64,000 bases of DNA from Arenicola marina. Lineage: Eukaryota > Annelida > Polychaeta > Arenicolidae. This document shows positions 13,581-50,700 of this stretch, one piece after another. The position numbers were made by a program, and so were the translations under genes. Each line of letters begins with the position of its first letter. Position 1 is the stretch's first letter. The DNA lies in assembly GCA_964019135.1 (NCBI GenBank), contig OZ025261.1, positions 29,558,029 through 29,622,028 of the forward strand, read 5' to 3'. Under the pieces are notes generated by a model that searched no databases, was not told where the DNA came from, and saw only the letters and a list, made by a program, of their open reading frames with translations.

Positions 13581-13584
13581 GCCA

Positions 13585-13594
13585 TATATAATAG
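13585..13594 (+). promoter_or_regulatory. Possible TATA box of the cysteine-module gene
   Basis: TATATAATAG lies 111 bp before the ATG at 13696, which would leave a 5'UTR of about 80 nt. This is positional inference only, because AT-rich words are common here. Confidence 0.3.
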
Positions 13595-13695: not shown

Positions 13696-13771
13696 ATGGT
13701 TACCAGCGCCGGATTGCTGTTTGCTCTGCTATGGATACTATGTTGTCCATTTTTAACCATGGCAAGATCTG
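13696..13771 (+). CDS. Exon 1: signal peptide of the cysteine-module protein
   Basis: The start is in a strong context (CGCCATGG). It encodes 25 residues, a short N-terminus then a long Leu/Phe/Trp-rich core, and ends in TCTG|GTACGT. The last base starts a codon (phase 1), which matches the phase of the exon at 21940. No other ATG nearby leads to a hydrophobic leader with a donor. Confidence 0.68.
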
Positions 13772-16700
13772 GTACGTTTTTAGGTTATATTATGTTGATG
13801 TGAAGTGTTGTTGGGTGATGTGTCTTAGTCCTTACACCTGCACCAAGCGGATATGTTGTACAGGTCATCTCCTGAACAGCGACCGTTAGGAAACTGCGAT
13901 GTGGGATGTACAGGGCTCGCGGGTTGCTTTTCCGTTTTATGTGCTTTGGGTACCAAAAAAAAAAAACACGTGCTGGTGGAACGAGTGCACATGACGCTGG
14001 TTCCTTGCCGCTGCAGCAGCCTGAGGTCTCGAGATAATAAGTCGAGGTCTCTACTTAATAACTCGAGATCTCGAGATAATAACTCGAGATATCTACTTAA
14101 TAACTCGAGATCTGGAGATAATAAGTCGAGATCTCGAGATAATAAGTCGTGGTCGCTACCTAAAAAGGCGAGATCTCGAGATAATAAGTCGAGCTCTCGA
14201 GATAATAAGTCGAGATCTCGAGACAATAAGTCGAGGTCTCTACTTAATAGGTCGAGATCGGGAGATAATAAGTCGAGATCTCGAGATAATAAGTCGAGAT
14301 CTCGAGGTGATAAGTCGAGATCTCGAGGTGATAAGTCGAGATCTCGAGATAATAACTCGAGATCTCTACTTAATAACTCGAGATCTCGAGATAATAAGTC
14401 GAGGTCTCTACTTAATAAGTCGAGATCTCTACTTAAAAACGCGAGATCTCGAGATAATAACGCGAGATCTCGAGACAATAAGTCGAGGTCTCTACTTAAT
14501 AGGTCGAGATCGGGAGATAATAAGTCGAGATCTCGAGATAATAAGTCGTGGTCTCTACCTAATAAGTCGAGGTCTCTAATTAATAAGTCGAGGTCTCTAC
14601 TTAATAAGTCGAGCTCTCGAGATAATAAGTCGAGATCTCGAGACAATAAGTCGAGGTCTCTACTTAATAGGTCGAGATCGGGAGATAATAAGTCGAAATC
14701 TCGAGATAATAAGTCGAGATCTCGAGGTGATAAGTCGAGATCTCGAGATAATAACTCGAGATCTCTACTTGATAACTCGAGATCTCGAGATAATAAGTCG
14801 AGGTCTCTACTTTATAAGTCGAGGTCTCTACTTAATAAGTCGAGATCTCTACTTGATAAGTCGAGATCTCTACTTAATAACTCGAGATCTCGAGATAATA
14901 ACTTGAGATATCTACTTAATAACTCGCGATCTGGAGATACTAGTTCGAGATCTCGAGATAATAAGTCGAGATCTCGAGATAATAAGTCGAGGTCTCTACT
15001 TAATAAGTCGAGGTCTTTACTTAATAAGTCGAGGTCTCTACCTAATAAGTCGAAATCTCGAGATAATAAGTCGAGATCTCTACTTAATAACTCGAGATCT
15101 CGAGATAATAAGTCGAGGTCTCGAGATAATAAGTCGTGGTCTCTACCTAATAAGTCGAGGTCTCTACTTAATAAGTCGAGATCTCGAGATAATAAGTCGA
15201 GATCTCGAGATAATAAGTCGAGGTCTCTAATTAATAAGTCGAGGTCTCTACTTAATAAGTCGAGCTCTCGAGATAATAAGTCGAGATCTCGAGACAATAA
15301 GTCGAGGTCTCTAGTTAATAGGTCGAGATCGGGAGATAATAAGTCGAGATCTCGAGATAATAAGTCGTGGTCTCTACCTAATAAGTCGAGGTCTCTACTT
15401 AATAAGTCGAGATCTCGAGATAATAAGTCGAGGTCTCGAGATAATAAGTCGAGGTCTCTCATTAATAAGTCGAGGTCTCTACTTAATAAGTCGAGCTCTC
15501 GAGATAATAAGTCGAGATCTCGAGACAATAAGTCGAGGTCTCTACTTAATAGGTCGAGATCGGGAGATAATAAGTCGAGATCTCGAGATAATAAGTCGAA
15601 ATCTCGAGGTGATAAGTCGAGATCTCGAGATAATAACTCGAGATCTCTACTTGATAACTCGAGATCTCGAGATAATAAGTCGAGGTCTCGAGATAATAAG
15701 TCGAGGTCTCTACTTTATAAGTCGAGGTCTCTACTTAATAAGTCGAGATCTCTACTTGATAAGTCGAGATCTCTACTTAATAACTCGAGATCTCGAGATA
15801 ATAACTTGAGATATCTACTTAATAACTCGCGATCTGGAGATACTAGTTCGAGATCTCGAGATAATAAGTCGAGATCTCGAGATAATAAATCGAGGTCTCT
15901 ACTTAATAAGTCGAGGTCTTTACTTAATAAGTCGAGGTCTCTACCTAATAAGTCGAAATCTCGAGATAATAAGTCGAGATCTCTACTTAATGACTCGAGA
16001 TCTCGAAATAATAAGTCGAGCTCTCGAGATAATAACTCGAGATCTCGAGACAATAAGTCGAGGTCTCTACTTAATAAGTCGAGATCTCGAGATAATAATT
16101 CGAGATCTCGAAATGATAACTCGAGATCTCTACTTAATAACTCGAGATCTCGAGATAATAAGTCGAGATCTCTACTTAATAACTCGAGATCCCGAGATAA
16201 TAAGTCGAGGTCTCTATTTAATAAGTCGAGCTCTCGAGATAATAAGTCGAGATCTCGAGACAATAAGTCGAGGTCTCTACTTAATAAGTCGAGATAATAA
16301 CTCGAGATCTCGAGATAATAAGTCGAGATCTCGAGATAATAAGTCGAGGTCTCTACTTAATAAGTCGAGATCTTGAGATAATAAGTCGAGGTCTCTACTT
16401 AATAAGTCGAGATCTCGAGATAATAGGTCGAGATCTCGAGATAATAAGTCGAGGTCTCTACTTAATAAGTCGAGATCTCGAGATCATAAGTCGAGGTCTC
16501 AAGATAATTAGTCGAGATCTCGAGATAATTATTCGAGATCTCGAGATAATAAGTCGAGATCTCGAGATAATAAGTCGAGATCTCGAGATAATAAGTCGAG
16601 ATCTCGAGATAATAAGTCGAGGTCTCTACTTAATAAGTCGAGATTTCGAGATAATAGGTCGAGATCTCGAGATAATAAGTCGAGATCTCTACTTAATAAC

Positions 16701-19700
16701 TCGAGATCCCGAGATAATAAGTCGAGGTCTCTATTTAATAAGTCAAGCTCTCGAGATAATAAGTCGAGATCTCGAGACAATAAGTCGAGGTCTCAACTTA
16801 ATAAGTCGAGATAATAACTCGAGATCTCTACTTAATAACTCGAGATCTCGAGATAATAAGTCGAGGTCTCTACTTAATAAGTCGAGATCTTGAGATAATA
16901 AGTCGAGGTCTCTACTTAATAAGTCGAGATCTCGAGATAATAGGTCGAGATCTCGAGATAACAAGTCGAGGTCTCTACTTAATAAGTCGAGATCTCGAGA
17001 TCATAAGTCGAGGTCTCAAGATAATTAGTCGAGATCTCGAGATAATTATTCGAGATCTCAAGATAATAAGTCGAGATCTCGAGATAATAAGTCGAGATCT
17101 CGAGATAATAAGTCGAGATCTCGAGATAATAAGTCGAGATCTCGAGATAATAAGTCGAGGTCTCTACTTAATAAGTCGAGATCTCGATATATTAAGTAGA
17201 GTATGGTTGAAGAAATATTATCAACCCATGTCCCCTGAGAGCTTAACCTACTCTGATGATTATAATTCTGATATACGCATTAAATTCAGTGGTTAGTTGT
17301 GCATCCAATACCAGCTGTAGTCGATTTCTTGTGTTAAAGTTGCATGTGGAACTCTTTCCCGCCAAAACTAATGAGGTCAAAATACATATAAGAATCAGTC
17401 CTTGAATCATTCAAGACTTCTTTTATCCATACTCCACCCATACCAGACTGCCAAATAGTGTCTCTTAGCCTTGTCCGTGATATTAATTTACCACAAGTTT
17501 TCATTTTAGTGGTAAACGTCATCAGTTTGAGTGCTTCGCGATGCTTTGTTATAAGTAGCAGTGCCACGACCGAGTTCTGTGGTGTCCCGGGATAGACACG
17601 TTTGCCACACCACAGCCGAAACGGCGATGTTTATCAGGTTTCTGAATTTATAGTATGAAACAATCGAATTTTCTGCAAAGTTTGATATAAATTTCGCCTG
17701 GGCTTAGTTTTCGCGGGAAAGAACGCGACATGCAACTTTAAGCGAGTGAAGGCAAACAATCACAGGACGATACCCGAGCAGCACAGCATAGATATCCATA
17801 ACTATGTATCGTGGGGTCTCGACCAGGTCCCGAAGTGACTGTACAGCCCTATAGCATTGACGTAGAGCATAGATATCCATAACTATGTATCGTGGGGTCT
17901 CGACCAGGTCCCGAAGTGACTGTACAGCCCTATAGCATTGACGTAGAGCATAGATATCCATAACTATGTATCGTGGGGTCTCGACCAGGTCCCGTAGTGA
18001 CTGTACAGCCCTATAGCATTGACGTAGAGCATAGATATCCATAACTATGTATCGTGGGGTCTCGACCAGATCCCGAAGTGACTGTACAGCCCTATAGCAT
18101 TGACGTAGAGCATAGATATCCATAACTATGTATCGTGGGGTCTCGACCAGGTCCCGAAGTGACTGTACAGCCCTATAGCATTGACGTAGAGCATAGATAT
18201 CCATAACTATGTTTCGCGGGGTCTCGACCAGGTCCCGAAGTGACTGTACAGCCCTATAGCATTGACGTAGAGCATAGATATCCATAACTATGTATCGTGG
18301 GGTCTCGACCAGATCCCGAAGTGACTGTACAGCCCTATAGCATTGACGTAGAGCATAGATATCCATAACTATGTTTCGCGGGGTCTCGACCAGATCCCGA
18401 AGTGACTGTACAGCCCTATAGCATTGACGTAGAGCATAGATATCCATACCTATGTTTCGCGGGGTCTCGACCAGATCCCGAAGTGACTGTACAGCCCTAT
18501 AGCATTGACGTAGAGCATAGATATCCATAACTATGTTTCGCGGGGTCTCGACCAGGTCCCGTAGTGACTGTACAGCCCTATAGCATTGACGTAGAGCATA
18601 GATATCCATAACTATGTATCGTGGGGTTTTCGACCAGATCCCGAAGTGACAGTACAGCCCTATAGCATTGACGTAGAGCATAGATATCCATACCTATGTT
18701 TCGCGGGGTCTCGACCAGGTCCCGTAGTGACTGTCCAGCCATCCTATACGTTCTTCTGTTCACTGCGGGATGTGGTTATTTGGCATCCGTCCCCCAATGT
18801 AAGATGATGGGTTCGCAGATTATGCTGCTGTAATTTTGCGGCATTTGCGCTTTCAGGAGAAAATTATTATAAATAATTAAGTTGAGATTGGCTCAGCTAG
18901 CCGGAGTTCGACTGACGGGAACAGCTGATGTCGAGCTCTTCAGAAGGAAAGTTTTTTGTGACATGTTGCTCCTTTAGGCCGATTTTGTGCACATAAGCTG
19001 CGTCCAAAAAACATCCAGCGATATAGCCTCGGGCGACCCACTCTGTCCAACGGCGGAACAGAGTGGGTCTCCCGAGGCTACCAGCGACAATGAAATTGGG
19101 TTGGTGTCAGGGGCGCGAACCCAAGACTTATGGTAATGTAGCTCAGTCCGCTTACCAACCGTGGATTTTGTAAAGCCCGTGTAGAAAGAAAAACGGCAAC
19201 TGCTATTATTTTCCCTTTTACTTTTCAAATTAGATGTACTTAAATGGATCTATGTTAATGTTTTTCAACAAGATGCAGGTAGGAAGACATTGGGTTATAC
19301 AGTTATTGTAGGTTAAGACTTGCATATATATCATTATGGCATGGACGAGACGGATGCCATGTTTTATTATTACATAATGGGAAAATTATAACATTTAGGT
19401 GAGCACAAAATCGAGGTTTGTAGCTTAAATAGACCCATCTACCACAAGCAATGGAAGTGGTATTTTAGGCTGCTTTTGTACACACAAAAACTAAACTGGG
19501 CCAAGTCCACTCACCCCAAGACAGGGCTTGCATGGCCAATTTGTACCTCCAGGACACGATTAATGGGTCCCTTGTTCGAAACCACCCGGTCTTGTCGATC
19601 CAATCTGAGGCATATTTCATTGAAAACTACTCTTTGTCCCTGGAGCCTAGGGCCTACATTAGCCCTCGTGCGAACAACACCAACCTAAAACAACACAATA

Positions 19701-22700
19701 GCAATCATCCCAAGATTTCAGGTTGCCATTTGATACGAAGAAGGGACCCCATAACCTGGTCTATTCCTAGCTTGATTGGCGTCCCTAAACCGGACCAAGG
19801 AGCCTTTTTTCTCCAAGGGATCCTAAGATTTGAAGTTTGGTGTTTAGAGCCGGATATGTTGAATCATTAGGTGATACCGTGCGCGTGGCAAGAGTCATAA
19901 TAACATGAAGCCATAGCCAGAGGGTAAGGACGTGTCTATGAAATAGCATGCGTCTCATGAGTTGTTGCCGCTTTCGCACTCCCCATCACAGAGGTTAAAT
20001 TCAGACAATTCATACACACGATTCCCTTAATTCCGTGTATCTAGTAGCCTTGTGTTACATCCCAGAGACCTCTACCTCACCGTCAACTCACAAGTTAATA
20101 CCATCTCTTTGTTTGAGACCGGATAAAGGCTCTTCCCAATCGAAACGCAGTTTATAGCCCCATCCACAGAGAGAATCATCGTTTATTTAGACCAGGAAAA
20201 CAACAATACAATACAGCATACAGCAACAACGAACACATCATAATCCCTGGCTGTGGAGACCACCATTATGGGTGTGGCGAACCTTCAGCTCAAACTGTGG
20301 TGTACGTCGTCTGACTGACCGCCGTACGACTGTCTACGCAGTGAAACATCCTTGGATTTTCTAACGACCTTTTCTAACTGTCTAACTAAGTATGGAGTTA
20401 TCACAAGCCAGATGGGCTCATGCCATCCCCGGGCTCACCCCGTGGCCTAGTGGGTGGAGCGTTCGGCCGGCTCTGTTAGGCCAGTCCAAGCCAGATGGGC
20501 TCATGCCATCCCCGGGCTCACCCCGTGGCCTAGTGGGTAGAGCGTTCGGCCGGTTCTGTTAGGCCAGTCCAAGCCAGATGGGCTCATGCCATCCCCGTGC
20601 TCAACCCGTGGCCTAGTGGGTAGAGCGTTCGGCCGGTTCTGTTAGGCCAGTCCAAGCCAGATGGGCTCATGCCATTCACGCGATCACCCCGTGTCCTAGT
20701 GGGTAGAGCGTTCGGCCGGTTCTGTTAGGCCAGTCCAAGCCGATGCATGGTTTGAATCCAACACACCTTGTGGCCCAGTCGGTAGCGCCTTCTGTGGCTC
20801 ATGCTCCACCTGTACAAGTATCTATGTTTGCGCATGATAAAGAACCCAGGTCTTCCTTGGCAAAGAGTAGGGGTTTATCCCTGCTGGAGACATGGCTCCT
20901 CTTGACCATTCCAATAGACATGACCTCTTTAACATAGATTAAAGCATTGATTAAGCCAACCAACCATCAAAACTTTCCAATGCCATCTGCGCAGTATTTT
21001 TTTAAGAGAATCTACATGACAAGCGCCGTGCAATGGACCCCGACCAAGCTTGAGTACTTTTCCTTTGATAATGAGTATGAAATTGACAAGAATCAAGAAT
21101 CAAGGTCCTTTCATCTGTTTATATATCTATAACTGACAAGACAGTGACATGCTGCTTTGTTTGTCCGATTTCGGTTTAAACATATTTATTTAACGAGGAT
21201 ACCCCGAATAGCATAGGCTAGGAACATGGGGCTTCCTAAAAAAAAATGAAAAGCAATATGTTACAATGTAAAACAAAATATGCAATAGTACAATGGGTCG
21301 TTTGTCCGACTTTTGTGTCCGACATAGCGCACGCGGAAGACCTTTTTTCACCGCACGGTTGGGTAAACACCACAGTGACGTCAGTGAATGACTGACAGCC
21401 TGGATCGGTCTATTACTCTGACATCGGTGAAGTCATCTCGTTCGTATCGTCAATGGTGACCGGCATGTCCCACGGATACCGATGGATATGTTATCAAAGC
21501 GAAGAGAAGTGTTACTCGGACAGAGTTCAGGCAAAAACATGTTCTGAGCTAAAGTCTGGAACGTGTTTGGAACGATTTGTAGCTTGGAACTGTAGCGTTA
21601 TCATGCAACCATGAACGGTGCACACTGTGTAGGGTCATCAAGCAACCATGAACGGTGCACACTGTGTAGGGTCATCAAGCAACCATGAACGGTGCAAAGT
21701 ATGAAGGATCATCGCGCAACAAGAAAAGGTGCAACGGCTGCTAAGTCATTAAGGAACCATGAAAGGTGCAAAATGCGTAGGAGGATCAAGCAACCATGAA
21801 CGGTGCAAGGGTTGCAGGGGCATCAAGCAACCATGAACGGTGCAACGGCTGCAGGGTCATCATAGAGCAATCTTGAACGGTGAAAGTTTTATTAATTGCC
21901 AGTCATGCAATCTCTATACATGTTTCTTTATATTTCCAGATTCATGCGAAGCGTCCTATTGCGCAGGCCTGAGACCGGACGAATGCTACCTGAACCATGA
22001 GGTCTGCTGTCAGACCTGTGCTCAGTACGAAACAGGCGTCACCGGTAGGTATATAATGAGCGGGTTGAGCAAGTCATGTGACAGGTTTGCTCTCTGGCAC
22101 TTTCACCCCAACCCCATTTCATTGTTCTGAGAGACTTCTTTGGGCCAGTTTAGCCTCCATGATGCGTACATAAAATGGCCCAAAGTACAAGCGTTTCATT
22201 TCCGCACAGACCAAATGCTGAGTGCCAACCTATATTCTATATTCCACCTTCAGAGCGCTATGACTTCTTGCAAAACTTTGCTGCCATAGTTTTGTTGCCA
22301 TTGCCGTTATTGCGCTGGGCTTGGCTCCAGATTGGCTGCAATAGGTCGGGGTTAATTTCGAGCTTCAGCTACTCCCTCCCCCCCCCCCCCGCACCTCTCC
22401 CAGTCATGGTCGCTCCATGTCCGTAGGACACACGAAATGTTTTTATTTTTATGTTAAAACCGGTTTGCGCTGTGCGGTGAGTCATGTTGAAAGAGCCGCG
22501 CGGGATGCGAGTTTGTAGGCCCACGAGTAGAGTGAGTCCCCTTGATTGGCCAGAGTCCAGTTCTAACGTCGAGAGTAGCGTTGAAGGAGTAGGGAATCAC
22601 TTCGGTCCCGGTGGCTTCGGACGCCCAAAATGGCCTAAAACGCACCATGTATATATGTGTGTAAAAAAGAAAGGCACGGGCACAGGGTAAACCACAAGCT

Positions 22701-24947
22701 GTAGGTAAGTCCAGGATAACAATATAATAGATAAAAACAGGCCAAAAACAGATCTGGGGAAAACATATAACAGATCAAAACGGGTCTGGGGAAAATGAAA
22801 TGGATCAAAACAGGCCAAAACGAGAATAGATCAAAATAGGCCAAAACAACAGTGAACAATCGTGAACAATTGCCACATTGCACACTTATGAATGAAAATG
22901 GAGACCCCGTGAGGGTAAATATGAGATGAACACTGAAACCAAGGTTTCAGGGGACCGAATAAGACGTGTCTTCATCAGGGGCCGTTCACGTCTCATCGCT
23001 GTTTCTGATCGCACATCAAACTAGCCGATCGAGTCGCCGCCCCACAACATAGGATTCATAACAAACCCCAGTCGAGAAGGCGGCCCCGATCAGCTAGCAT
23101 GGCGGCGAAATGGCCCAACAGCGATCTACCAGACTCTGATAGCAATAGGCTTGGTGAAAATACTGAAACGGTATAGAAAATCATACCTAGTTCAGTGAAC
23201 CTATAGAGTCTTGGTTACCTGGCGTGGCAGAGGCATCGAGTGAAGTCGCCAAGAGGGCTACTGCCTTTTAAACCGACCCACCGTGTGTTCTGTGCACGCA
23301 AAACTAAAACTGCAAATGAGTAATTCAGAGCCAAAATGTGAGCATAGAATGAGAAGGCCAAACCAAGGAGTGGTCGCGGTGAGGAATAAGGCCTAAAACG
23401 ATGGTTATGTACAAGCTGGGTTGGGGCGGGTGGGCCAACTCATAATACAAACTGAATGCAGTCGCTCGGTCAACAAAGGACCGACTACAGACGAAGTAGG
23501 GATGATATGGAAGGCGAGGCGTATTATTTACTTACCAGGTAAATACGGTCCGTTATTGGATCGGAGCCTCAGACTATGGGATGACGGGAACCCCACACAA
23601 ATAATTTAGGTACGCGTGGCTAGCCAATAGCCAAAATGCGTCGAATGGTCAAAACCGTGGGTGAACCTTAACTGTAAAAGGTAGGTGAAGTCAACTTGTA
23701 GCTCACATTTGGATGCTAACAAGAGTACTTCTGACAGATGCTACTCCCGGTAGTCCCCTTGATTGGCCAGAGTCCAGTTCTAACGTCGAGAGTAGCGTTG
23801 AAGGAGTAGGGAATCACTTCGGTCCCGGTGGCTTCGGACGCCCAAAATGGCCTAAAACGCACCATGTATATATGTATGTATATTTGTCGTAATGGGTTTA
23901 ACGATTACGTGTATCCAAAATGGCGCCCAGTTCAGATGATGGTGCTCCGTAAAACGTCTTCCAAAGATATATAGGCCTATTGTTTATTTTTTGGATGAAT
24001 TTAATAGCCAAATCGGATTAAGTTATGCGAAATTATGATTTTTAGGTCCAATGTGCCTAGACAAGTCAGAATTTTCAACCATGTCTCTTCTTCTGGAAAA
24101 CACCCGTGGAAAGTACAGGCTGAAACTGGGACCCAACGGAGTTAGTCGCCTAAGGCAAATCGAAAGGGATGAAAGGGATGAATATGGTTGCATATTCAGG
24201 ACACTTTAACCACTACCCAATGGGAGTAGGAAGGGAAAGTGTAGCCATGTTCCCGGGGGGTAACCCCCTGCTCTTTGCGAAGAAGGACATGGGATCTTTA
24301 CCCTGTGACCACGCATACATGACCACAGCTGGGCTCGACCACCGTTCCTCGTGCCGTTAGACTCTCAGGTGGCCAGAGCACTCAGTGCGTGCGCTCTAGC
24401 CCACTGAGCTACCGGGCCGGCCCCGAAAGGGATGAAGAATATGATGACGTAAAAAGATGTGTAACGTGTAAATATAACATTTTACAGAACGGTAAAAATG
24501 AATACCGGTACGTAATCAAATATGATTTACTTTAATATTGATCCTACGTCTAGCCCACGCCTTGGTTTTCAACTGCAAAAAGATTTTTTTCTCGAACGTT
24601 ATATATTTTAATTTAATTAATTTATATATTTTTGGGTCTAATATAGTGAGTGACAAGAGATTTTGTCGCTGTTTACAGGTTGCGAGTTTGGTGACCGCGC
24701 GTCCATCTGTGGCCTTGACTTCTGTAACGTCACCGACAATGTGGAAATCTGCTGCGACACCTGCCGTGACGTCACTACCGATGGCTTCAGCACTACCACA
24801 GTCGCCATGTCTACCCGAGTCACTCCGTCAAGGCCGGATATGACGCCCCCGCCGTCTGCAGCGCCACCAACGGCAGTCGTTGAAACGAAGATGTTTTTCT
24901 TGATGATGTTATTATACTTCCACCCACATTGTTTGAGCCTGTGTTGA
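13696..24947 (+). CDS. Small secreted protein with two PLAC-like cysteine modules (3 exons)
   Basis: The span joins 13696-13771, 21940-22044 and 24679-24947. The sum is 450 nt, exactly 149 codons plus stop, with both introns in phase 1. Residues 1-25 form a signal peptide (MVTSAGLLFALLWILCCPFL...). Residues about 28-49 carry module 1 with spacing C-x4-C-x7-C-x6-CC-x2-C. Residues about 62-88 carry module 2 with C-x8-C-x4-C-x8-CC-x2-C, starting CEFGDRAS. This six-cysteine pattern resembles the PLAC module at the end of ADAMTS/papilin proteins and similar CxYGD repeats in invertebrate extracellular proteins. A Thr/Ser/Pro-rich stretch follows, then a hydrophobic tail (MFFLMMLLYF) that could be a GPI signal or membrane anchor. 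No protease domain is seen, so the role is unknown. Intron 1 is 8.2 kb and almost entirely tandem repeats. Alternative: the exons belong to a larger gene with undetected exons. Confidence 0.72.
14023..17198. repeat. 21-bp satellite with two monomer types, about 151 copies
   Basis: Type 1 is TCGAGATCTCGAGATAATAAG, whose core CTCGAGATCTCGAG is a perfect palindrome. Type 2 is TCGAGGTCTCTACTTAATAAG. They alternate in non-random blocks. A block with the rare variant ACTTGAGATATC at 14901 reappears at 15804, exactly 903 bp (43 units) away, showing an internal segmental duplication. Another block near 16289 reappears near 16806. The array lies in intron 1 of the cysteine-module gene. An 814-codon SR-rich frame through it is a by-product of the 7-codon unit. 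Confidence 0.95.
17199..17784. other. Unique-looking intron sequence between two arrays
   Basis: I see nothing beyond single-copy-looking AT-rich intron DNA. The small open frame at 17334-17567 (-) has no recognisable domain. Confidence 0.4.
17785..18740. repeat. 81-bp minisatellite, about 11.8 copies
   Basis: The unit runs from CGTAGAGCATAGATATCCAT through GTGGGGTCTCGACCAGGTCC to CCCTATAGCATTGA, 81 bp. Copies are nearly identical, with two-state sites (TATCGTGG/TTTCGCGG, CAGGTC/CAGATC, CGAAG/CGTAG). A 325-codon minus-strand frame arises because 81 bp is 27 codons. The array is within intron 1 of the + strand gene. Confidence 0.95.
19024..19080. repeat. Near-perfect hairpin, 23-nt arms
   Basis: The arms are 19024-19046 (TAGCCTCGGGCGACCCACTC...) and 19058-19080, complementary except at one position, with an 11-nt loop. 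The hairpin lies just upstream of a tRNA-like relic. Confidence 0.85.
19100..19170 (-). repeat. tRNA-like / SINE relic
   Basis: On the minus strand TTGGTAAGCGGACTGAGCTA resembles an A box and its D-arm neighbourhood. GGGTTCGCGCCCC (19110-19122) resembles a B box at a suitable distance. It does not fold as an intact tRNA by eye, so a relic of a tRNA-derived SINE is more likely. Confidence 0.4.
19171..20404. other. Intron 1 sequence, no strong feature
   Basis: AT-rich and mixed sequence. A roughly 45-bp stretch at 19463-19508 (GCTTTTGTACACAC..., AAACTGGGCCAAG) resembles 30799-30841, perhaps a small dispersed repeat. No exon with matching phase is recognised. Confidence 0.35.
20405..20945 (+). 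mobile_element. tRNA-derived SINE with 5' part tandemly amplified
   Basis: Four exact-length 83-bp units start at 20405, 20488, 20571 and 20654, with the next phase point at 20737. Each contains the A-box-like TGGCCTAGTGGGTAGAGCG. Only the last copy continues into a B box (GGTTTGAATCC, 20749-20759) and the SINE body, where AAAGAACCCAGGTCTTCC and GCAAAGAGTAGGGG occur. That body matches the element at 24174-24423, and from memory it resembles the conserved central domain of Meta-type SINEs. It lies in intron 1 of the + strand gene. Confidence 0.75.
21595..21880. repeat. 37-bp tandem repeat, about 8 copies
   Basis: GCAACCATGAACGGTGCA recurs at 21605, 21642, 21679 and, with changes, at 21716, 21753, 21790, 21827 and 21867. 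The outer units are the most diverged. It ends 60 bp before exon 2 of the + strand gene. Confidence 0.9.
21940..22044 (+). CDS. Exon 2: first PLAC-like cysteine module
   Basis: The acceptor is TTTCTTTATATTTCCAG with a good pyrimidine tract, and the donor is ACCG|GTAGGT. Length is 105 nt and the phases are 1-1, the symmetric pattern typical of shuffled extracellular modules. It encodes CEASYC...DEC...CCQTC followed by AQYETGVT. Confidence 0.8.
22536..23874. mobile_element. Element with 123-bp direct terminal repeats
   Basis: 22536-22658 and 23752-23874 are near-identical direct repeats (AGTCCCCTTGATTGGCCAG ... CACCATGTATATATGT) enclosing about 1.1 kb with no coding capacity. Direct terminal repeats around a short non-coding interior suggest a small non-autonomous LTR-like or Penelope-like fossil. 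The close match of its ends suggests a young insertion. Near 22943-22979 the minus strand carries a CTGATGAAGAC ... GAAACC motif of the kind seen near Penelope-type ends. The whole lies in intron 2 of the + strand gene. Family assignment is uncertain. Confidence 0.5.
22735..22850. repeat. Decayed ~22-bp tandem repeat
   Basis: Variants of AGATCAAAACAGGCCAAAA recur inside the element at 22536-23874. Confidence 0.5.
24174..24423 (-). mobile_element. tRNA-derived SINE with 13-bp target duplication
   Basis: The minus strand starts with GGCCGGCCCGGTAGCTCAGT (A-box region, 24392-24412) and has a B-box-like GGTCGAGCCC (24331-24340). The body contains AAAGATCCCATGTCCTTC and GCAAAGAGCAGGGG, shared with the SINE at 20405-20945. 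Direct repeats CGAAAGGGATGAA flank it at 24161-24173 and 24424-24436. It is in intron 2 of the + strand gene. Confidence 0.85.
24679..24947 (+). CDS. Exon 3: second cysteine module, stalk and hydrophobic tail
   Basis: The acceptor is CGCTGTTTACAG|GTTGCGAG. The first two bases complete a Gly codon with the last base of exon 2. It encodes CEFGDRASICGLDFC...ICCDTC, then a Thr/Ser/Pro-rich stretch of about 40 residues and MFFLMMLLYFHPHCLSLC before TGA at 24945-24947. The tail ends in a less hydrophobic stretch than a textbook GPI signal, so the anchoring mode is open. Confidence 0.78.
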
Positions 24948-25521: not shown

Positions 25522-25527
25522 AATAAA
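25522..25527 (+). terminator. Candidate poly(A) signal of the + strand gene
   Basis: This is the first AATAAA I see after the stop at 24947. It would give a 3'UTR of about 0.6 kb. Confidence 0.4.
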
Positions 25528-27419: not shown

Positions 27420-30400
27420 CTGGAGTGAAAACGAATTACGGTTTATTTATTTGTGATCGATAGACTTCCATAGAAAAGGATTGTTATACGTTTCATAGTA
27501 GTGGATAACATATTGTGTAAGAAGCAGCAGCTTCAATATAAGTTGTATGCCATAATAACACATTGTTAGTATTGTATCTCAAAATATGGTTTAAACTCTT
27601 GTTGATTACAAAGGCAATATGAAAAGTAAATAATAACTGGAATAATAAGGTTTAATAGTGTAATAATGAGCGGACAAGAATACAGATTTTTATCCAGACT
27701 ATCATCCAGTGTAAGTATTTGATCTGAGTAAGTATTGAACCGTTACGCCCTCTCCCCACTCCACTGGGTGTTACCACTACGTCACTGTATATCACCATAA
27801 ACATCTTTCCTATACTGTTCATTTATTAATTGTGCATCCAATATTTTGGCTCTTCTCCAATTTTTGGGAATATTTCTCGCAGAAGATAACTACTCGAGCT
27901 AATGTGGGGAATGATTCAAAATCACAAACGAGACGCCGAAAGTCCAGTCAAGATCGACAGCCGATAAAAAACGCTTCAACACGGATTGATCTAATACATC
28001 TTGCGTTTGACTACTTTCGTTTCGTATCATTTGCCAAAGCGGTTCAGCTTTATGGACAGGATTAGCCGCATTGGTTCTTGGAATGTTAATCGAGCGTTAG
28101 CCCAGGAAATGTAGAGTATGAGGTGACGCACGAAATTACCATTCGTTCACCATTTATAACAAGGATGCGTTATCTATTGGAAATATTGTTTACTAACCAT
28201 GCACCTTGGCACCTTTATGGAGGGAGAGCTCGCCAAACCTGCAAAGAAATGCAACGGATCCATCAACTTACGCCTGCTTGGTTTTCTGCGTATTCGCTGA
28301 TGATGAGGTCCTCTATCTGTGTGTACTGAGTGTTGGGACACATCTGTCCGATGCAGATCAGGTAGTTGATGAGATCCTTGAGGTCATTTGGCTTCGGTCT
28401 TAGGACCTCCTTGTACTTCACCTTACACTCCGTGGTACGGGCCGGATATTTAAAGTCACCCGAAACGCTGAATCGCTGATTCGGTCCTTTCACTGAAGCT
28501 AAGAGAAGAACAAATCGATTAAAATATGTCATATCTTTATGCGTAGCTATTTCTTTCAGCATTTCTATATGACAAAGAGGCGTCGTCTTGTGGAAAGTTT
28601 CCTTTTATTACCCACGGTGTCTGTTTAGGAGGGTCATTAGAGGTAGAAAAGCTTGCAAATGTAACTGTTGGATTACCAGTGTGACAGCGCAACATCCCTA
28701 CATGCTAGTATGGAAGTGAGGAGGATGCATCGAATGTATTGTAAGGTTCTCGTGATCTGTCGAGACACTATGGCATCAGTCTGCATAATTTTTAAGTCTT
28801 GGAATACTTTGAAAGCGGTAACTTGGTGTGAAGGACCCACTCGCTCAACCCGCGGAAGTACGTTGTGTCAAAAAACCATTTGTGGCTATAACAAATGGAA
28901 ATATATCTACGTAAAAATCTGCGCTGCATATCTAGATATAAGAAAGGTTCCGTTTCGAATCCAGTCTATTTCTTAAATCACAATCAACGTGACATCAATT
29001 AAAAATAGTTAGATATGAATAATTCTGATTTGCCGATGTCAACTGAATGAAAAGACTCTCCGGCCGCTGCAAAATATCAACCTATTCTGATCACTATATG
29101 TTGAGCAATGGATGTTTAAGGAGAGTGAACCAGTGAAGCCACCAGGACAATTCCAGGGGGTGGCAGGGACCTACCCGGGGGAAAAGGGCGGTTGGTGGAG
29201 CAGGTGCCCGGAGCGACAGTCACCACAGGTGGTGCGGTGGTGAAGGTGAAGTCGAAATCCTCCTCCGGAACGGGATCACCATGGACTGTAAGGCAGAAGT
29301 GGATCGGGATTATATCAGAGTGATGCGCGGTAATAGAATAACGGTTTGTTGCAAACGTTACAGAGACGGTTTATCGTAAAGTGACTGAGAACAATATTGG
29401 ATCAATATTATTACTGATTAGATAGACATATAAATATTAGTTTATCATAGATACTTGTGAGGACGAAAAGAGAATACAAGAATGTGAGTTATAGAAGAGA
29501 GACAAGCAACAGGGAAAAGAACCATTATAATCGTAATAACTGATAGATGTCATTGCAATAATAACGAGCCAAAGTTGTTGGAAGCGACACTTACTGGCGT
29601 ATCCCGTGGCGTATCCATATCCGGTGGGCTCGACCCCTCCATGTCCATACAGGTACCCCACGAACTTGACATTGTCATCCGGATGGTACATGGTATAGTT
29701 GTCGGGATCGACCCCGAAGGACACGACCGCCCACTGGCCGTCCACCCCGGTGGTCCAACTCGCCGTGTTCCCGAAGACGGTGGCGATGGGTCGGTCGTTG
29801 AGAATGATTCCCGACGCGGCCGCTATGGGCGCCACCACTGTCAGGTAGTTGATGAAGGGCACGGTTCCCATGGTGTCCCACAGTCTGGCCGTCGTGAAGG
29901 TCATCCGGTTGGTCAGGTGGTCGTTCGGGGTGATGAGGGTCATGAAGGGGTCGGTGACGGTGTCCACGTTGCTGAACGCCCGATAGCCTTTGTTATACTG
30001 CGCCACGAGGCATTTCTCGCTGCACTTCACGGTGACGATGGACCGGGCGTCAGGGATGTCGACCGTGATGAAGTCCCCGCGATGCTTGAAGTAGGAGTCC
30101 GTGCCGCCGTTGTGGGTGATTACATCGATCGTGGTGTTCATGTAGCCGGCGATGACGCGAATGGTGTACCCGGCCTGGTACTGGCGCCCGATGATAGGAC
30201 CCGTGACGAACTGCCACCCCCACTCGTCAATCGGGGGCACCTGCTCTACGATGTGGTCGCAGAACTTCTTGACGACCGGGATCTGAGAGCACTCGTGGCC
30301 CCCGAGCACGGCGATGGGCCGCGTGGCGCTGACAAACACCCCGGTGTAATCCTCGATTTCCGAGTACGTCTGGAACACCTCGAACTCGCCCAGAGACCTG

Positions 30401-33400
30401 AAGAAGATGCGTCTGACGTCAGTTCCGTTGACGTAGGAAGCCTCCACGCACGTGTCCTTGTACGGCGACACGATCAGGAAGGTGGAGTGCCCAAGCGGAA
30501 TGTTGTCGAAGGACGGGATGAAGAATTCCTTGGAGGTGGCCGTCAGGGGCAGCACTAGCATGCCGTCCGTGCTACCCTGGGTGGCCTTGGCCGCTTGGAT
30601 GTTGATGCGGTGGTCGGCAGTCACTCGCAGAGCGTTGAACACGGTTTGCGTCGTCAGGGCGTCGTCGTCGTTGAGATTTCTACGCGTCACCTGTTCTACG
30701 AACTGCGGCACGATGGGGTCCTTGTAGCGCACCTCGTCCCGGATGTCAGTGCCAATCTTCGGAACCTGCGACAGAAAACGTATTAATTGGTGGTTTAGGC
30801 GCTTTTGTGCATTCTTGCAAGGACCAAACTGGGCCAGGGATTCTCCCCGGGGACCATCAATGAATGAATCATGCCCCAGGTTAGGTGCTCGGGCCACAGA
30901 TGAAAACTACCGCGCCGCCAGAGATACTATCTAGCGTTAGCTTTTAATCTGATGAAAAAACAAACACTTCTACTTCTAAGATGGAAAATGTTGGCGTTGT
31001 ATGCCGCTTGTGTCGCACATGAAGGCCTCAAATTGCCATTCTGCAGATGGGAGGGACAGCACTTTTGGGATTCGTATATTGCGTTATATTAGGGTTAGTT
31101 ACGCAAGAGAAGTAATACACACTAAGAAAAGCTTGCTACCCTTGACATTTTTAATCTACAGGATTATAGGATATTTCTTATCGCATTTTATCTGTACTTT
31201 CATACGGAAACCAATGTGCGAGAATTAAATAGGGTTGTTATTATGTGATAAATCTCTGCATTTGTATATTTTAAACGACCGCGTAGAAATAATGTATAAT
31301 AACATAGAGAGCAAGCGATAACACAGTACTCCCCCACCCTAATAGCAGACCCAGCGGGGGAGGGTGCTACTGCGGCGTATGCCCTACCACCGTGGGTAAG
31401 GCCGTACAAGCCCCCCCCCCCCCGACAGGTTTAGCCCCCGAGAATAGAGAAGTCTAGCCCTGTCCAGGAGCAGCAACCTGATCCCCCCCCCCCGCCCGCC
31501 TCCGCCGCCTATGCACTGTAATCGCGAAATTCAAGCCTCCTCACCCCCTAAAGTCTGGATCCGCCCCTGCCCCCACCCCCTCCACCCTCCCTTATTGTGC
31601 ACCTCTCTCCTTTTACAGCGTGCTTCAACCCAACAATGGAACTCTTCCAAATTTTCAGAGGTACTCACTCCAATGTGATCCCCCCCCCTCCTCCACCTTG
31701 CCACCCCTACATACATCCACCCACTCCCACCACGCCCCCCCCACCACGCCCCCCCCCCACCACCCACCACATTTTTCCACCCCTGGGTCGGCCTTTGGTG
31801 TACTCACCTCCACCCTGAAATGGCTTTGATTCCACATTGTTCCGAGGAATATTTCCTGGTAGACGGGCAGGTTGGGGTCATCCAGTGAGATGTTCATGAA
31901 GGCAAACACAAACACGTGCTTGTCGTTGTCTAAAAATAAACAACAACAATAAACCGGTTGCGTATATTTAATCCGCAACTGGCAGAATCTAGGATAACGT
32001 CGGATAATATAGAAATAGACAGCGATAGATAATAACATATTATCAAAAAAGCCAAACATTTCTACGTAAATGAGAACTATTGTACATTACGCGCCAAGAC
32101 GATGGTATAAAGAACTTAAAGGAATTTAAATTAATTTGGACTCTAAGATACGGAAAGTCTTATATGATGTGATATAAGCGGGCAGGATCAGTTTTGTTGT
32201 CTTGGCCTTCCATATCGAGCAGAGAAACTCACCCGTTAGCGCCGCAGACCCTAAAAGAAATGAATGAAAAGATATGTTACTGGACCGACATTGCATTATG
32301 CAGGTCATGATGCAACAACATTGTTGCGGCATGTACTTTAAGTGTCTTATTATTATCACACCTATACACTTTAGTACAGGTAATACCGGTACATGTTATA
32401 CCGGTACATGTTATAAGCGTACATGTTATACCGGCACATGTTATACCGGTACATGGATACCGGTACATGTTATAAGCGTACATGTTATACCGGCACATGT
32501 TATACCGGTACATGGATACCGGTACATGTATACTAGTACATGTATACCGGTACATGTTATACCGGTACATGTATACCGGTACATGTATACCGGTACATGT
32601 TATACCGGTACACGTATACTGGTACATGTAATACTGGTACATGTAATACTGGTACATGTTATACCGGTACATGTTATACCGGTACATGTTATACCGGTAC
32701 ATGTATACCGGTACATGTATACTGGTACATGTATACCGGTACATGTTAAACCGGTACATGTATACTGGTACATGTAATACTGGTACATGTTATACCGGTA
32801 CATGTTATACCGGTACATGTTATACCGGTACATGTATACCGGTACATGTTATACCGGTACATGTTATACCGGTACATGTGTGCCGGTACATGCATACCGG
32901 TACATGTATACCGGTACGTGTATACCGGTACATGTATACCGGTACATGTATACCGGTACATGTATACCGGTACATGTTATACCGGTACATGTATACTGGT
33001 ACATGTAATACCGGTACATGTTTTACCGGTACATGTTATACCGGTACATGTTATACCGGTACATGTTATACCGGTACATGTGTGGAGGTACATGCATACG
33101 GGTACATGTATACCGGTACGTGTATACCGGTACGTGTATACCGGTACATGTATACCGGTACATGTATACCGGTACATGTTATACCGGTACATGTACACTG
33201 GTACATGTAATACCGGTACATGTTATACCGGTACATGTTATACCGGTACATGTACACTGGTACATGTTATACCGGTACATGTTATACCGGTACATGTTAT
33301 ACCGGTACATGTTATACCGGTACATGTACACCGGTACATGTAATACCGGTACATGTTATACCGGTACATGTTATACCGGTACATGTCATACCGGTACATG

Positions 33401-44708: not shown

Positions 44709-47700
44709 CGGCGTGAGGTGAGCAATAAGGACACACACCAGGTCCTCGTCCTATGGAAGGCGCGACGTGAGCAATAAGGACACACACCAGGTCCTCGTCC
44801 TATGGACGGCGTGACGTGAGCAATAAGGACACACACCAGGTCCTCGTCCTATGGACGGCGTGACGTGAGCAATAAGGACACACACCAGGTCCTCGTCCTA
44901 TGGAAGGCGCGACGTGAGCAATAAGGACACACACCAGGTCCTCGTCCTATGGACGGCGTGACGTGAGCAATAAGGACACACACCAGGTCCTCGTCCTATG
45001 GCCGGTGTGACGTGAGCAATAAGGACACACACCAGGTCCTCGTCCTATGGCCGGTGTGACGTGAGCAATAAGGACACACACCAGGTCCTCGTCCTATGGC
45101 CGGTGTGACGTGAGCAATAAGGACACACACCAGGTCCTATGGCCGGTGTGACGTGAGCAATAAGGACACACACCAGGTCCTCGTCCTATGGCCGGTGTGA
45201 CGTGAGCAATAAGGACACACATCAGGTCCTCGTCCTATGGCCGGTGTGACGTAAGCAATAAGGACACACACCAGGTCCTCGTCCTATGGCCGGTGTGACG
45301 TGAGCAATAAGGACACACACCAGGTCCTCGTCCTATGGCCGGTGTGACGTGAGCAATAAGGACACACACCAGGTCCTCGTCCTATGGCCGGTGTGACGTG
45401 AGCAATAAGGACACACACCAGGTCCTCGTCCTATGGCCGGTGTGACGTGAGCAATAAGGACACACACCAGGTCCTCGTCCTATGGCCGGTGTGACGTGAG
45501 CAATAAGGACACACACCAGGTCCTCGTCCTATGGCCGGTGTGACGTGAGCAATAAGGACACACACCAGGTCCTCGTCCTATGGCCGGTGTGACGTGAGCA
45601 ATAAGGACACACACCAGGTCCTCGTCCTATGGCCGGTGTGACGTGAGCAATAAGGACACACACCAGGTCCTCGTCCTATGGCCGGTGTGACGTGAGCAAT
45701 AAGGACACACACCAGGTCCTCGTCCTATGGCCGGTGTGACGTGAGCAATAAGGACACACACCAGGTCCTCGTCCTATGGCCGGTGTGACGTGAGCAATAA
45801 GGACACACACCAGGTCCTCGTCCTATGGCCGGTGTGACGTGAGCAATAAGGACACACACCAGGTCCTCGTCCTATGGCCGGTGTGACGTGAGCAATAAGG
45901 ACACACACCAGGTCCTCGTCCTATGGCCGGTGTGACGTGAGCAATAAGGACACACACCAGGTCTTCGTCCTATGGCCGGTGTGACGTGAGCAATAAGGAC
46001 ACACACCAGGTCCTCGTCCTATGGCCGGTGTGACGTGAGCAATAAGGACACACACCAGGTCCCCGTCCTATGGACGGCGTGACGTGAGCAATAAGGACAC
46101 ACACCAGGTCCTCGTCCTATGGCCGGTGTGACGTAAGCAATAAGGACACACACCAGGTCCTCGTCCTATGGCCGGTGTGACGTGAGCAATAAGGACACAC
46201 ACCAGGTCCTCGTCCTATGGCCGGTGTGACGTGAGCAATAAGGACACACACCAGGTCCTCGTCCTATGGCCGGTGTGACGTGAGCAATAAGGACACACAC
46301 CAGGTCCTCGTCCTATGGCCGGTGTGACGTGAGCAATAAGGACACACACCAGGTCCTCGTCCTATGGCCGGTGTGACGTGAGCAATAAGGACACACACCA
46401 GGTCCTCGTCCTATGGCCGGTGTGACGTGAGCAATAAGGACACACACCAGGTCCTCGTCCTATGGCCGGTGTGACGTGAGCAATAAGGACACACACCAGG
46501 TCCTCGTCCTATGGCCGGTGTGACGTGAGCAATAAGGACACACACCAGGTCCTCGTCCTATGGCCGGTGTGACGTGAGCAATAAGGACACACACCAGGTC
46601 CTCGTCCTATGGCCGGTGTGACGTGAGCAATAAGGACACACACCAGGTCCTCGTCCTATGGCCGGTGTGACGTGAGCAATAAGGACACACACCAGGTCCT
46701 CGTCCTATGGCCGGTGTGACGTGAGCAATAAGGACACACACCAGGTCCTCGTCCTATGGCCGGTGTGACGTGAGCAATAAGGACACACACCAGGTCCTCG
46801 TCCTATGGCCGGTGTGACGTGAGCAATAAGGACACACACCAGGTCTTCGTCCTATGGCCGGTGTGACGTGAGCAATAAGGACACACACCAGGTCCTCGTC
46901 CTATGGCCGGTGTGACGTGAGCAATAAGGACACACACCAGGTCCCCGTCCTATGGACGGCGTGACGTGAGCAATAAGGACACACACCAGGTCCTCGTCCT
47001 ATGGCCGGCGTGACGTGAGCAATAAGGACACACACCAGGTCCTCGTCCTATGGATGGTGTGACGTGAGCAATAAGGACACACACCAGGTCCTGGTCCTAT
47101 GGACGGTGTGACTTGAGCAATAAGGACACACACCAGGTCCTCGTCCTATGGCCGGTGTGACGTGAGCAATAAGGACACACACCAGGTCCCCGTCCTATGG
47201 ACGGCGTGACGTGAGCAATAAGGACACACACCAGGTCCTCGTCCTATGGCCGGCGTGACGTGAGCAATAAGGACACACACCAGGTCCTCGTCCTATGGAT
47301 GGTGTGACGTGAGCAATAAGGACACACACCAGGTCCTGGTCCTATGGACGGTGTGACTTGAGCAATAAGGACACACACCAGGTCCTCGTCCTATGGCCGG
47401 TGTGACGTGAGCAATAAGGACACACACTAGGTCCTCGTCCTATGGACGGTGTGACGTGAGCAATAAGGACACACACCAGGTCCTCGTCCTATGGCCGGTG
47501 TGACGTGAGCAATAAGGACACACACCAGGTCCTCGTCCTATGGCCGGTGTGACGTGAGCAATAAGGACACACACCAGGTCCTCGTACTATGGACGGTGTG
47601 ACGTGAGCAATAAGGACACACACAAGGTCCTCGTCCTATGGACGTTGTGACGTGAGCAATAAGGACACACACCAGGTCCTCGTCCTATGGACGGCGTGAC

Positions 47701-50700
47701 GTGAGCAATAAGGACACACACCAGGTCCTGGTCCTATGGACGGTGTGACGTGAGCAATAAGGACACACACCAGGTCCTCGTCCTATGGCCGGTGTGACGT
47801 GAGCAGTAAGGACACACACAAGGTCCTCGTCCTATGGACGTTGTGACGTGAGCAATAAGGACACACACCAGGTCTTATGGACGGTGTGACGTAAACAATA
47901 AGGACACACACCAGGTCCTCGTCATATGGCCGGTGTGACGTGAGCAATAAGGACACACACCAGGTCCTCGTCCTATGGACGGCGTGACGTGAGCAATAAG
48001 GACACACACCAGGTCCTGGTCCTATGGACGGTGTGACGTGAGCAATAAGGACACACACCAGGTCCTCGTCCTATGGCCGGTGTGACGTGAGCAGTAAGGA
48101 CACACACAAGGTCCTCGTCCTATGGACGTTGTGACGTGAGCAATAAGGACACACACCAGGTCCTATGGACGGTGTGACGTAAACAATAAGGACACACACC
48201 AGGTCCTCGTCATATGGCCGGTGTGACGTGAGCAATAAGGACACACACCAGGTCCTCGTCCTATGGACGGCGTGACGTGAGCAATAAGGACACACACCAG
48301 GTCCTGGTCCTATGGACGGTGTGACGTGAGCAATAAGGACACACACCAGGTCCTCGTCCTATGGCCGGTGTGACGTGAGCAATAAGGACACACACCAGGT
48401 CCTATGGACGGTGTGACGGGAACAATAAAGACACACACCAGGTCCTCGTCCTATGGCCGGTGTGACGTGAGCAATAAGGACACACACCAGGTCCTCGTCC
48501 TGTGGCCGGTGTGACGTGAGCAATAAGGACACACACCAGGTCCTCGTCCTATGGCCGGTGTGACGTGAGCAATAAGGACACACACCAAGTCCTCGTCCTA
48601 TGGCCGGTGTGACGTGAGCAATAAGGACACACACCAGGTCCTCGTCCTATGGCCGGTGTGACGTGAGCAATAAGGACACACACCAGGTCCTCGTCCTATG
48701 GCCGGTGTGACGTGAGCAATAAGGACACACCAGGTCCTCGTCCTATGGCCGGTGTGACGTGAGCAATAAGGACACACACCAGGTCCTCGTCCTATGGCCG
48801 GTGTGACGTGAGCAATAAGGACACACACCAGGTCCTCGTCCTATGGCCGGTGTGACGTGAGCAATAAGGACACACACCAGGTCCTCGTCCTATGGCCGGT
48901 GTGACGTGAGCAATAAGGACATACACCAGGTCCTCGTCCTATGGCCGGTGTGACGTGAGCAATAAGGACACACACCAGGTCCTCGTCCTATGGCCGGTGT
49001 GACGTGAGCAATAAGGACACACACCAGGTCCTCGTCCTATGGCCGGTGTGACGTGAGCAATAAGGACACACACCAGGTCTTCGTCCTATGGCCGGTGTGA
49101 CGTGAGCAATAAGGACACACACCAGGTCCTCGTCCTATGGCCGCTGTGACGTGAGCAATAAGGACACACACCAGGTCCCCGTCCTATGGACGGCGTGACG
49201 TGAGCAATAAGGACACACACCAGGTCCTCGTCCTATGGCCGGCGTGACGTGAGCAATAAGGACACACACCAGGTCCTCGTCCTATGGATGGTGTGACGTG
49301 AGCAATAAGGACACACACCATGTCCTCGCTCTATGGACGGTGTGACGTGAGCAATAAGGACACACACCAGGTCCTATGGCCGGTGTGACGTGAGCAATAA
49401 GGACACACACCAGGTCCTCGTCCTATGGACGGTGTGACGTGAGCAATAAGGACACACACTAGGTCCTCGTCCTATGGACGGTGTGACGTGAGCAATAAGG
49501 ACACACACCAGGTCCTCGTCCTATGGCCGGTGTGACGTGAGCAATAAGGACACACACCAGGTCCTCGTCCTATGGACGGTGTGACGTGACCAGTAAGGAC
49601 ACACACAAGGTCCTCGTCCTATGGACGTTGTGACGTGAGCAATAAGGACACACACCAGGTCCTATGGACGGTGTGACGTAAACAATAAGGACACACACCA
49701 GGTCCTCGTCATATGGCCGGTGTGACGTGAGCAATAAGGACACACACCAGGTCCTCGTCCTATGGACGGCGTGACGTGAGCAATAAGGACACACACCAGG
49801 TCCTGGTCCTATGGACGGTGTGACGTGAGCAATAAGGACACACACCAGGTCCTCGTCCTATGGCCGGTGTGACGTGAGCAATAAGGACACACACCAGGTC
49901 CTATGGACGGTGTGACGGGAACAATAAAGACACACACCAGGTCCTCGTCCTATGGCCGGTGTGACGTGAGCAATAAGGACACACACCAGGTCCTCGTCCT
50001 ATGGCCGGTGTGACGTGAGCAATAAGGACACACACCAAGTCCTCGTCCTATGGCCGGTGTGACGTGAGCAATAAGGACACACACCAGGTCCTATGGACGG
50101 TGTGACGTGAACAATAAGGACACACACCAGGTCCTCGTCCTATGGCCGTCGTGACGTGAGCAATAAGGACACACACCAGGTCCTCGTCCTATGGCCGGTG
50201 TGACGTGAGCAATAAGGACACACACCAGGTCCTCGTCCTATGGCCGGTGTGACGTGAGCAATAAGGACACACACCAGGTCCTCGTCCTATGGCCGGTGTG
50301 ACGTGAGCAATAAGGACACACACCAAGTCCTCGTCCTATGGCCGGTGTGACGTGAGCAATAAGGACACACACCAGGTCCTCGTCCTATGGCCGGTGTGAC
50401 GTGAGCAATAAGGACACACACCAGGTCCTCGTCCTATGGCCGTCGTGACGTGAGCAATAAGGACACACACCAGGTCCTCGTCCTATGGCCGGTGTGACGT
50501 GAGCAATAAGGACACACACCAGGTCCTCGTCCTATGGCCGGTGTGACGTGAGCAATAAGGACACACACCAGGTCCTCGTCCTATGGCCGGTGTGACGTGA
50601 GCAATAAGGACACACACCAAGTCCTCGTCCTATGGCCGGTGTGACGTGAGCAATAAGGACACACACCAGGTCCTCGTCCTATGGCCGGTGTGACGTGAGC

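What the first reader, a model, noticed from the sequence alone, without database searches (positions are those of the whole stretch)
13696..24947. A three-exon gene hidden under 8 kb of intronic satellite
Three short exons, none obvious alone, join in phase 1 to an exact 450-nt reading frame: signal peptide, two six-cysteine PLAC-like modules, Thr/Ser/Pro stretch, hydrophobic tail. A free-standing two-module protein of this kind, without a metalloprotease or TSP1 part, is unusual as far as I know. The first intron is mostly tandem arrays, so automated gene finders would probably miss exon 1.
Basis: partly seen in the sequence, partly recalled or inferred. Interest (0 to 1): 0.75.

Follow-up and report, generated by a model that had tools for sequence, protein, structure and literature searches.

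The report
Protease-free, anchored two-module surface protein
A gene hidden in repetitive worm DNA appears to encode a small cell-surface protein made of two cysteine-rich building blocks that in related animals often hang on the end of matrix-cutting enzymes, but here without the enzyme; whether the gene is active is not yet shown.

Summary
The three-exon frame is present as described: 450 nt, 149 aa, GT-AG, phase 1. Exons 2 and 3 are genuine module exons: they hold the window's only two matches to the six-cysteine pattern (0.015 expected), and homologous phase-1 module exons lie in arrays on the same chromosome. PLAC membership is not supported; remote kinship stays possible. The modules belong to a repeated unit without a matching Pfam model, found in annelid and mollusc M12B/ADAMTS_CR_2 metalloproteases (75 of 120 listed relatives) and in entries with neither domain (45 of 120; some are fragments). 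One locus on the same chromosome has M12B and CR2 exons followed by modules and a Thr-rich tail. No protease exon was found within 100 kb of the window. Exon 1 is the only strong phase-1 signal-peptide exon in 264 kb and is single-copy, but nothing shows transcription. Four nearby copies hold exon 3 without exon 2. Best reading: a protease-stripped, GPI-tethered module protein, a surface binder or decoy. Main rival: a decaying fragment.

The parts
13584..13593 (+). TATA-like stretch about 100 nt upstream of the start codon
   Evidence: read in the sequence; not tested as a promoter
13696..13771 (+). exon 1: start codon in a CGCCATGG context, signal peptide of about 23 residues, phase-1 donor G|GTACGT
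   Evidence: weight-matrix score 9.07 with cleavage TMA^RS; only strong candidate in 264 kb on both strands; 231 bp around it match only themselves in the genome
13772..21939 (+). intron 1, 8168 bp, 58% tandem arrays (14023-17201, 17785-18740, 20404-20745, 21591-21862)
21940..22044 (+). exon 2: module 1, spacing 4-7-6, lacking the usual YGDR stretch between Cys 1 and Cys 2; phase 1 on both sides
   Evidence: best match among about 650 relative modules E 2.2e-9
22045..24678 (+). intron 2, 2634 bp, with a 129-bp direct-repeat pair at 22535-22663 and 23752-23880
24679..24947 (+). exon 3: module 2 (spacing 8-4-8), Thr/Ser/Pro stalk, GPI-signal-like tail (small residues S120-A121-A122, 9-residue spacer, hydrophobic 18 residues), stop
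   Evidence: best relative module E 6.3e-10, also of the 8-4-8 type
25522..25527 (+). first AATAAA downstream of the stop, possible polyadenylation signal

Best explanation
The locus is a small gene for a secreted, probably GPI-anchored surface protein: signal peptide, two six-cysteine modules, a Thr/Ser/Pro stalk and a hydrophobic anchor signal. It is the C-terminal, ligand-binding end of an annelid M12B/ADAMTS_CR_2 metalloprotease family without the protease. Shown by sequence: module homology, exon phases, the order ordinary module then 8-4-8 module then Thr-rich stretch, and the lack of protease exons within 100 kb. Inferred: exon 1 is joined to exon 2; the tail is a GPI signal; the protein sits on cells and binds the same matrix or substrate partners as the enzymes' modules, so that it docks or competes with them (decoy, like protease-free ADAMTS-like proteins; that comparison is from general knowledge).
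For: Open three-exon frame, consistent phases. Module homology at E about 1e-9 to 1e-10 to modules of M12B proteins. Homologous phase-1 module exons on the same chromosome: 27 of 34 genome matches lie on C14, and the 7 elsewhere all have E 0.41 or worse; exon boundaries and phases as in the window. Same order (ordinary module, 8-4-8 module, Thr-rich) in Capitella P0030, an M12B protein that also ends in a hydrophobic tail, and in clusters A and F of this genome; cluster F has M12B and CR2 exons just upstream. Hydrophobic GPI-like C-termini in 11 of 120 relatives, all 11 with M12B or CR2 domains. Exon 1 is the single strong signal-peptide exon in 264 kb and is not a repeat. tblastn of all 120 listed relatives over the 264 kb finds nothing better than E 0.01 except the modules of exon 2, exon 3 and one exon 3 copy; the same queries at E<=1e-3 find five protease/CR2 stretches in 10 kb at cluster F.
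Against: No transcript. No detectable relative of the whole 149-aa product in 5.8 billion proteins. No sign of purifying selection in exon 3: window against three copies 1 synonymous and 7 to 9 non-synonymous differences; against L027 3 and 4. Module 1 has lost the conserved YGDR stretch. The tail holds HPH and was not run through a GPI predictor. The decoy role is analogy only.
Confidence: 0.5

Rival explanations
1. Decaying fragment: exons 2 and 3 are a remnant of a larger M12B-module gene, no longer expressed, and the signal-peptide exon 8 kb upstream is coincidental or belongs to something else.
For: The segment sits in a recently duplicated, repeat-rich stretch; four copies of exon 3 at about 95% DNA identity, all without exon 2 and three with a replaced C-terminus. 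Differences in exon 3 look neutral or relaxed. Module 1 is degenerate.
Against: The frame is open in all three exons with four intact splice sites, stop, anchor-like tail and all twelve cysteines. Exon 1 is the only strong candidate in 264 kb and lies on the right strand with the right phase.
Confidence: 0.3
2. Larger or alternative gene: the exons are real and expressed but spliced to other, more distant or differently placed exons (another signal peptide, further modules or a protease beyond 100 kb).
For: Relatives usually have more modules (2 to 17 per protein). A weaker rival first exon exists at 18696.
Against: No other module or protease exon of this family in the 264 kb apart from one exon 3 copy. 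The rival first exon scores 3.05 against 9.07.
Confidence: 0.15
3. Tethered channel modulator: the modules have a ShK-like fold and the anchored protein modulates ion channels rather than binding matrix.
For: AlphaFold model of module 2 (mean pLDDT 79, pTM 0.42, three short helices) has one Foldseek match in the PDB, a minimal ShK homologue (5wcv, TM 0.66 by query, rmsd 0.9, 26 columns).
Confidence: 0.05

Closest known systems
Lophotrochozoan M12B/ADAMTS_CR_2 metalloproteases with C-terminal six-cysteine modules (e.g. Capitella P0030, Paralvinella P0026 fragment, Mizuhopecten P0068 'ADAM family mig-17')
   Same: Same module, same 8-4-8 subtype, same order before a Thr-rich stretch; some end in a GPI-like tail
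   Different: The window gene has no M12B or CR2 part and only two modules
Protease-free multi-module proteins of bivalves (P0013 Mactra, P0015 Mercenaria)
   Same: Signal-peptide-like start, array of the same modules, no protease domain
   Different: 17 modules and a transmembrane-like segment with a long cytoplasmic tail instead of an anchor signal
PLAC domain (PF08686)
   Same: Six cysteines ending in CC-x2-C, extracellular, linked to ADAMTS-type proteins
   Different: No Pfam match; lacks the C-x-D and the L-V stretch of the five PLAC domains of this genome
ShK/ShKT modules and astacin (M12A)-ShKT proteins of snails (passages of PMC6409789)
   Same: Six-cysteine module both free-standing and behind a metalloprotease; weak fold match
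   Different: Different cysteine spacing and different protease family; no ShK match by sequence
ADAMTS-like proteins and papilin (recall)
   Same: Ancillary modules of ADAMTS-type proteases occurring without the protease
   Different: Built on TSP1 repeats, which are not reported for the product nor in the precomputed Pfam lists of the 120 relatives

Membership tests
PLAC (PF08686) | match to the PLAC profile | tested here: not met
   no match at E<=10 for the product or for either module alone; against a five-sequence profile 115 and 46 of 500 Cys-preserving shuffles score as high
PLAC (PF08686) | remote kinship of the module family | tested here: inconclusive
   3 of 30 modules match PLAC, best E 0.0031; hhalign probability 47%, E 1.9e-4 for one pair
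six-cysteine module of lophotrochozoan M12B/CR2 proteins (no Pfam model found) | sequence homology of both modules | tested here: met
   E 2.2e-9 and 6.3e-10 among about 650 modules taken from 120 relatives
six-cysteine module of lophotrochozoan M12B/CR2 proteins (no Pfam model found) | one module per exon with phase-1 borders | tested here: met
   window exons agree with most module exons of clusters A-F; some array exons hold two modules
M12B/ADAMTS_CR_2 metalloprotease | M12B catalytic domain and CR2 domain in the gene | tested here: not met
   no such exon in window or 100 kb on either side, while the method finds them at cluster F
GPI-anchored protein | signal peptide plus C-terminal small-residue site, spacer and hydrophobic end | tested here: inconclusive
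   all elements present by eye and hydropathy; no predictor or experiment
ShK fold | fold and cysteine pairing | tested here: inconclusive
   single weak Foldseek match; disulfides not testable

The most novel reading that the evidence does not exclude
An expanding annelid family of matrix metalloproteases has shed a protease-free, GPI-tethered two-module paralogue, encoded under satellite-filled introns, that works as a surface decoy or docking receptor for the ligands of its parent enzymes; the module itself is an undescribed, possibly ShK-like repeat spread over annelid and mollusc surface proteins, including protease-free transmembrane receptors.
Probability: 0.3. Interest if true: 0.55.

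Novelty: new variant of a known kind. Interest (0 to 1): 0.42.

Why it matters
It places an apparently orphan gene in a defined family and shows how a long, satellite-filled intron can leave the parts of a short secreted protein hard to see. It also points to a repeated six-cysteine module, widespread in annelids and molluscs, for which no Pfam model was matched; such modules occur behind M12B proteases and in protease-free proteins, so their ligand is a testable open question. If the window gene is expressed, it is a case of an enzyme family yielding an anchored, non-enzymatic binder.

Tried and rejected
PLAC as the family: rejected, remote kinship left open. Single-protein search with the 149-aa product: no hit, explained by short, cysteine-dominated modules and the word filter. 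Pfam family searches of the genome for Reprolysin_5 (1 match, on C5) and ADAMTS_CR_2 (3 matches, none on C14) miss the split exons of cluster F, which tblastn finds; their silence is therefore no evidence of absence. tRNA and Rfam scans of the window: nothing. Pfam scan of ten other window ORFs: nothing at E<=0.01. PDB by sequence: one chance-level match, none for the module profile. Selection test on exon 3: too few changes to decide. Identifying the organism by COX1 failed because the tool was busy; annelid is inferred from the neighbour gene and from module relatives. Literature: nine searches listed no paper that describes this module; I read only passages of PMC6409789 and PMC10885894, the latter naming an annelid M12B peptidase; everything else was seen as listings with starts of abstracts.

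Full report
What is there. The product is a predicted signal peptide, module 1 (exon 2), module 2 (exon 3), a Thr/Ser/Pro stretch and a hydrophobic end. The six-cysteine pattern occurs in the window at these two places only, against 0.015 expected from 200 Markov controls. Intron 1 (8168 bp) is 58% tandem arrays, intron 2 is 2634 bp.

Exon 1. The start codon lies in a good context (CGCCATGG) with a TATA-like stretch about 100 nt upstream. With a weight matrix typed from recall the signal peptide scores 9.07 with cleavage after TMA; the next best first exon, at 18696, scores 3.05. In 264 kb on both strands, 14 loose phase-1 candidates appear and one strong one, which is this exon. The cut-offs for 'strong' were set after its score was known. 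The 231 bp around it match only themselves in the 867-Mb genome. This supports exon 1 but is no proof of splicing.

The genome. The window is C14:29558029-29622028 of an assembly of 867 Mb. The neighbour ORF on the minus strand at 29437-30906 is an IgGFc_binding protein (E 3.6e-42) whose best named relatives are the annelids Paralvinella (50%) and Capitella (37%); I take the organism for an annelid (inference).

Relatives in the same genome. A search with the mature part gives 34 matches, 27 of them on C14; the 7 elsewhere have E 0.41 or worse. They fall in three groups: four further copies of exon 3 between 29.67 and 29.95 Mb; arrays at 36.84-37.11 Mb; arrays at 0.92-0.93 Mb. The arrays consist of exons with phase-1 borders, mostly one module each, with the consensus xGCEYGDxxSWC...CY...CCxTC...TGxxG. 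Module 1 of the window is an ordinary module that has lost the YGDR stretch. Module 2 has the spacing 8-4-8, which occurs once in each of the six array loci A-F as read, and in 18 of 120 database relatives. In loci A and F, and in Capitella P0030, the 8-4-8 module is followed by a Thr-rich stretch, as in the window.

Relatives elsewhere. A query made of joined module pieces found 125 proteins, 120 listed, with named ones mainly from molluscs and annelids; 75 of the 120 carry an M12B or ADAMTS_CR_2 domain by the precomputed Pfam lists, 45 neither. Many of the 45 come from short contigs and may be fragments; others, such as P0013 and P0015, look complete, with a signal-peptide-like start, 17 modules, no protease domain in Pfam and a transmembrane-like segment matched only below Pfam's cut-off. 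Only proteins of about 0.55 to 1.75 times the 619-residue query could be found, so short two-module relatives would have been missed. The two window modules match relative modules at E 2.2e-9 and 6.3e-10. Eleven of 120 relatives end in a hydrophobic, GPI-like tail, all eleven with M12B or CR2 domains.

A likely parental form. In the 10 kb upstream of locus F (L047) tblastn finds five stretches of an M12B-CR2 protein, among them HEMGH and GAYHD (the two halves of the zinc-binding motif, recalled) and a CR2 stretch, on the same strand and about 1.6 kb before the first module. Locus F thus looks like a complete M12B-CR2-module-Thr-rich gene; its full model was not made. The same 120 queries over the window and 100 kb on each side give nothing better than E 0.01 except exon 2, exon 3 and one exon 3 copy. 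So the window gene lacks the protease as far as 100 kb reach.

Duplication. The segment from 20392 onwards recurs downstream at about 94-95% identity. The copies go from the 83-bp array almost directly to exon 3: 21356 joined to 24638 in three (L028-L030), 21084 to 24641 in the fourth (L027), so exon 2 is absent; in three, exon 3 is cut at 24874 and joined to 27785, replacing the anchor end; the fourth keeps it. The sequence before the L027 copy shows no match to the window. Whether the copies lost exon 2 or the window gained it is not settled. Differences in exon 3 between window and copies are 1 synonymous to 7-9 non-synonymous for three copies and 3 to 4 for L027, so no constraint is shown.

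PLAC and fold. No Pfam match for the product; a profile of five true PLAC domains from this genome does not separate the modules from Cys-preserving shuffles. Three of 30 family modules touch PLAC weakly, and profile comparison gives 47% probability. A model of module 2 (pLDDT 79, pTM 0.42) has three short helices and one weak PDB match, a minimal ShK homologue. The modules may thus be distant cousins of PLAC or ShK; I file them under neither.

Mechanism. Most likely the product enters the secretory path, is trimmed near residue 23, folds as two disulfide-bonded modules on a Thr/Ser/Pro stalk, and is GPI-anchored near S120. As ancillary modules of ADAMTS-type proteases bind matrix or substrate (general knowledge), a protease-free anchored copy would act as a binder or decoy on cells. 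All steps after the frame are inferred. The main rival is a decaying fragment; transcript data would decide.

Noticed in passing
window 29437-30906, minus strand: IgGFc_binding-domain ORF (Pfam E 3.6e-42) with a copy about 122 kb away at 94.5% DNA identity (pS 0.053, pN 0.035; the copy has an in-frame stop and small gaps).
   Followed up: partly
C14:29.58-29.95 Mb (L026-L030): Five copies of exon 3, one inverted; four lack exon 2 and three share the same two junctions.
   Followed up: partly
L047 and L038 (C14:0.93-0.94 Mb): Apparent complete M12B-CR2 metalloprotease gene with four of these modules and a Thr-rich end.
   Followed up: partly
L032, L033, L037, L039, L043, L045 (C14:36.997-37.081 Mb): Two nearly identical arrays of eight modules (clusters C and D), each ending in a stop right after the last module.
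   Followed up: partly
P0013, P0015 (Mactra, Mercenaria): Protease-free proteins with 17 of the modules, a transmembrane-like segment and a long tail; in P0013 the tail shows NPxY-like and other tyrosine motifs.
   Followed up: no
window 22535-23880: 129-bp direct repeats, 99% identical, 1217 bp apart in intron 2: a recent LTR-like element.
   Followed up: no
window 20404-20745: 83-bp tandem array whose unit holds a tRNA A-box-like stretch (TGGCCTAGTGGGTAGAGCG; motif recalled); ARAGORN calls no tRNA. The duplicated segments start at this array.
   Followed up: no
window 24184-24424: Interspersed repeat with 79-83% copies in the upstream 100 kb, SINE-like by eye.
   Followed up: no
window 44709-55825: 11-kb satellite of 49-bp units, 92% matches.
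   Followed up: no
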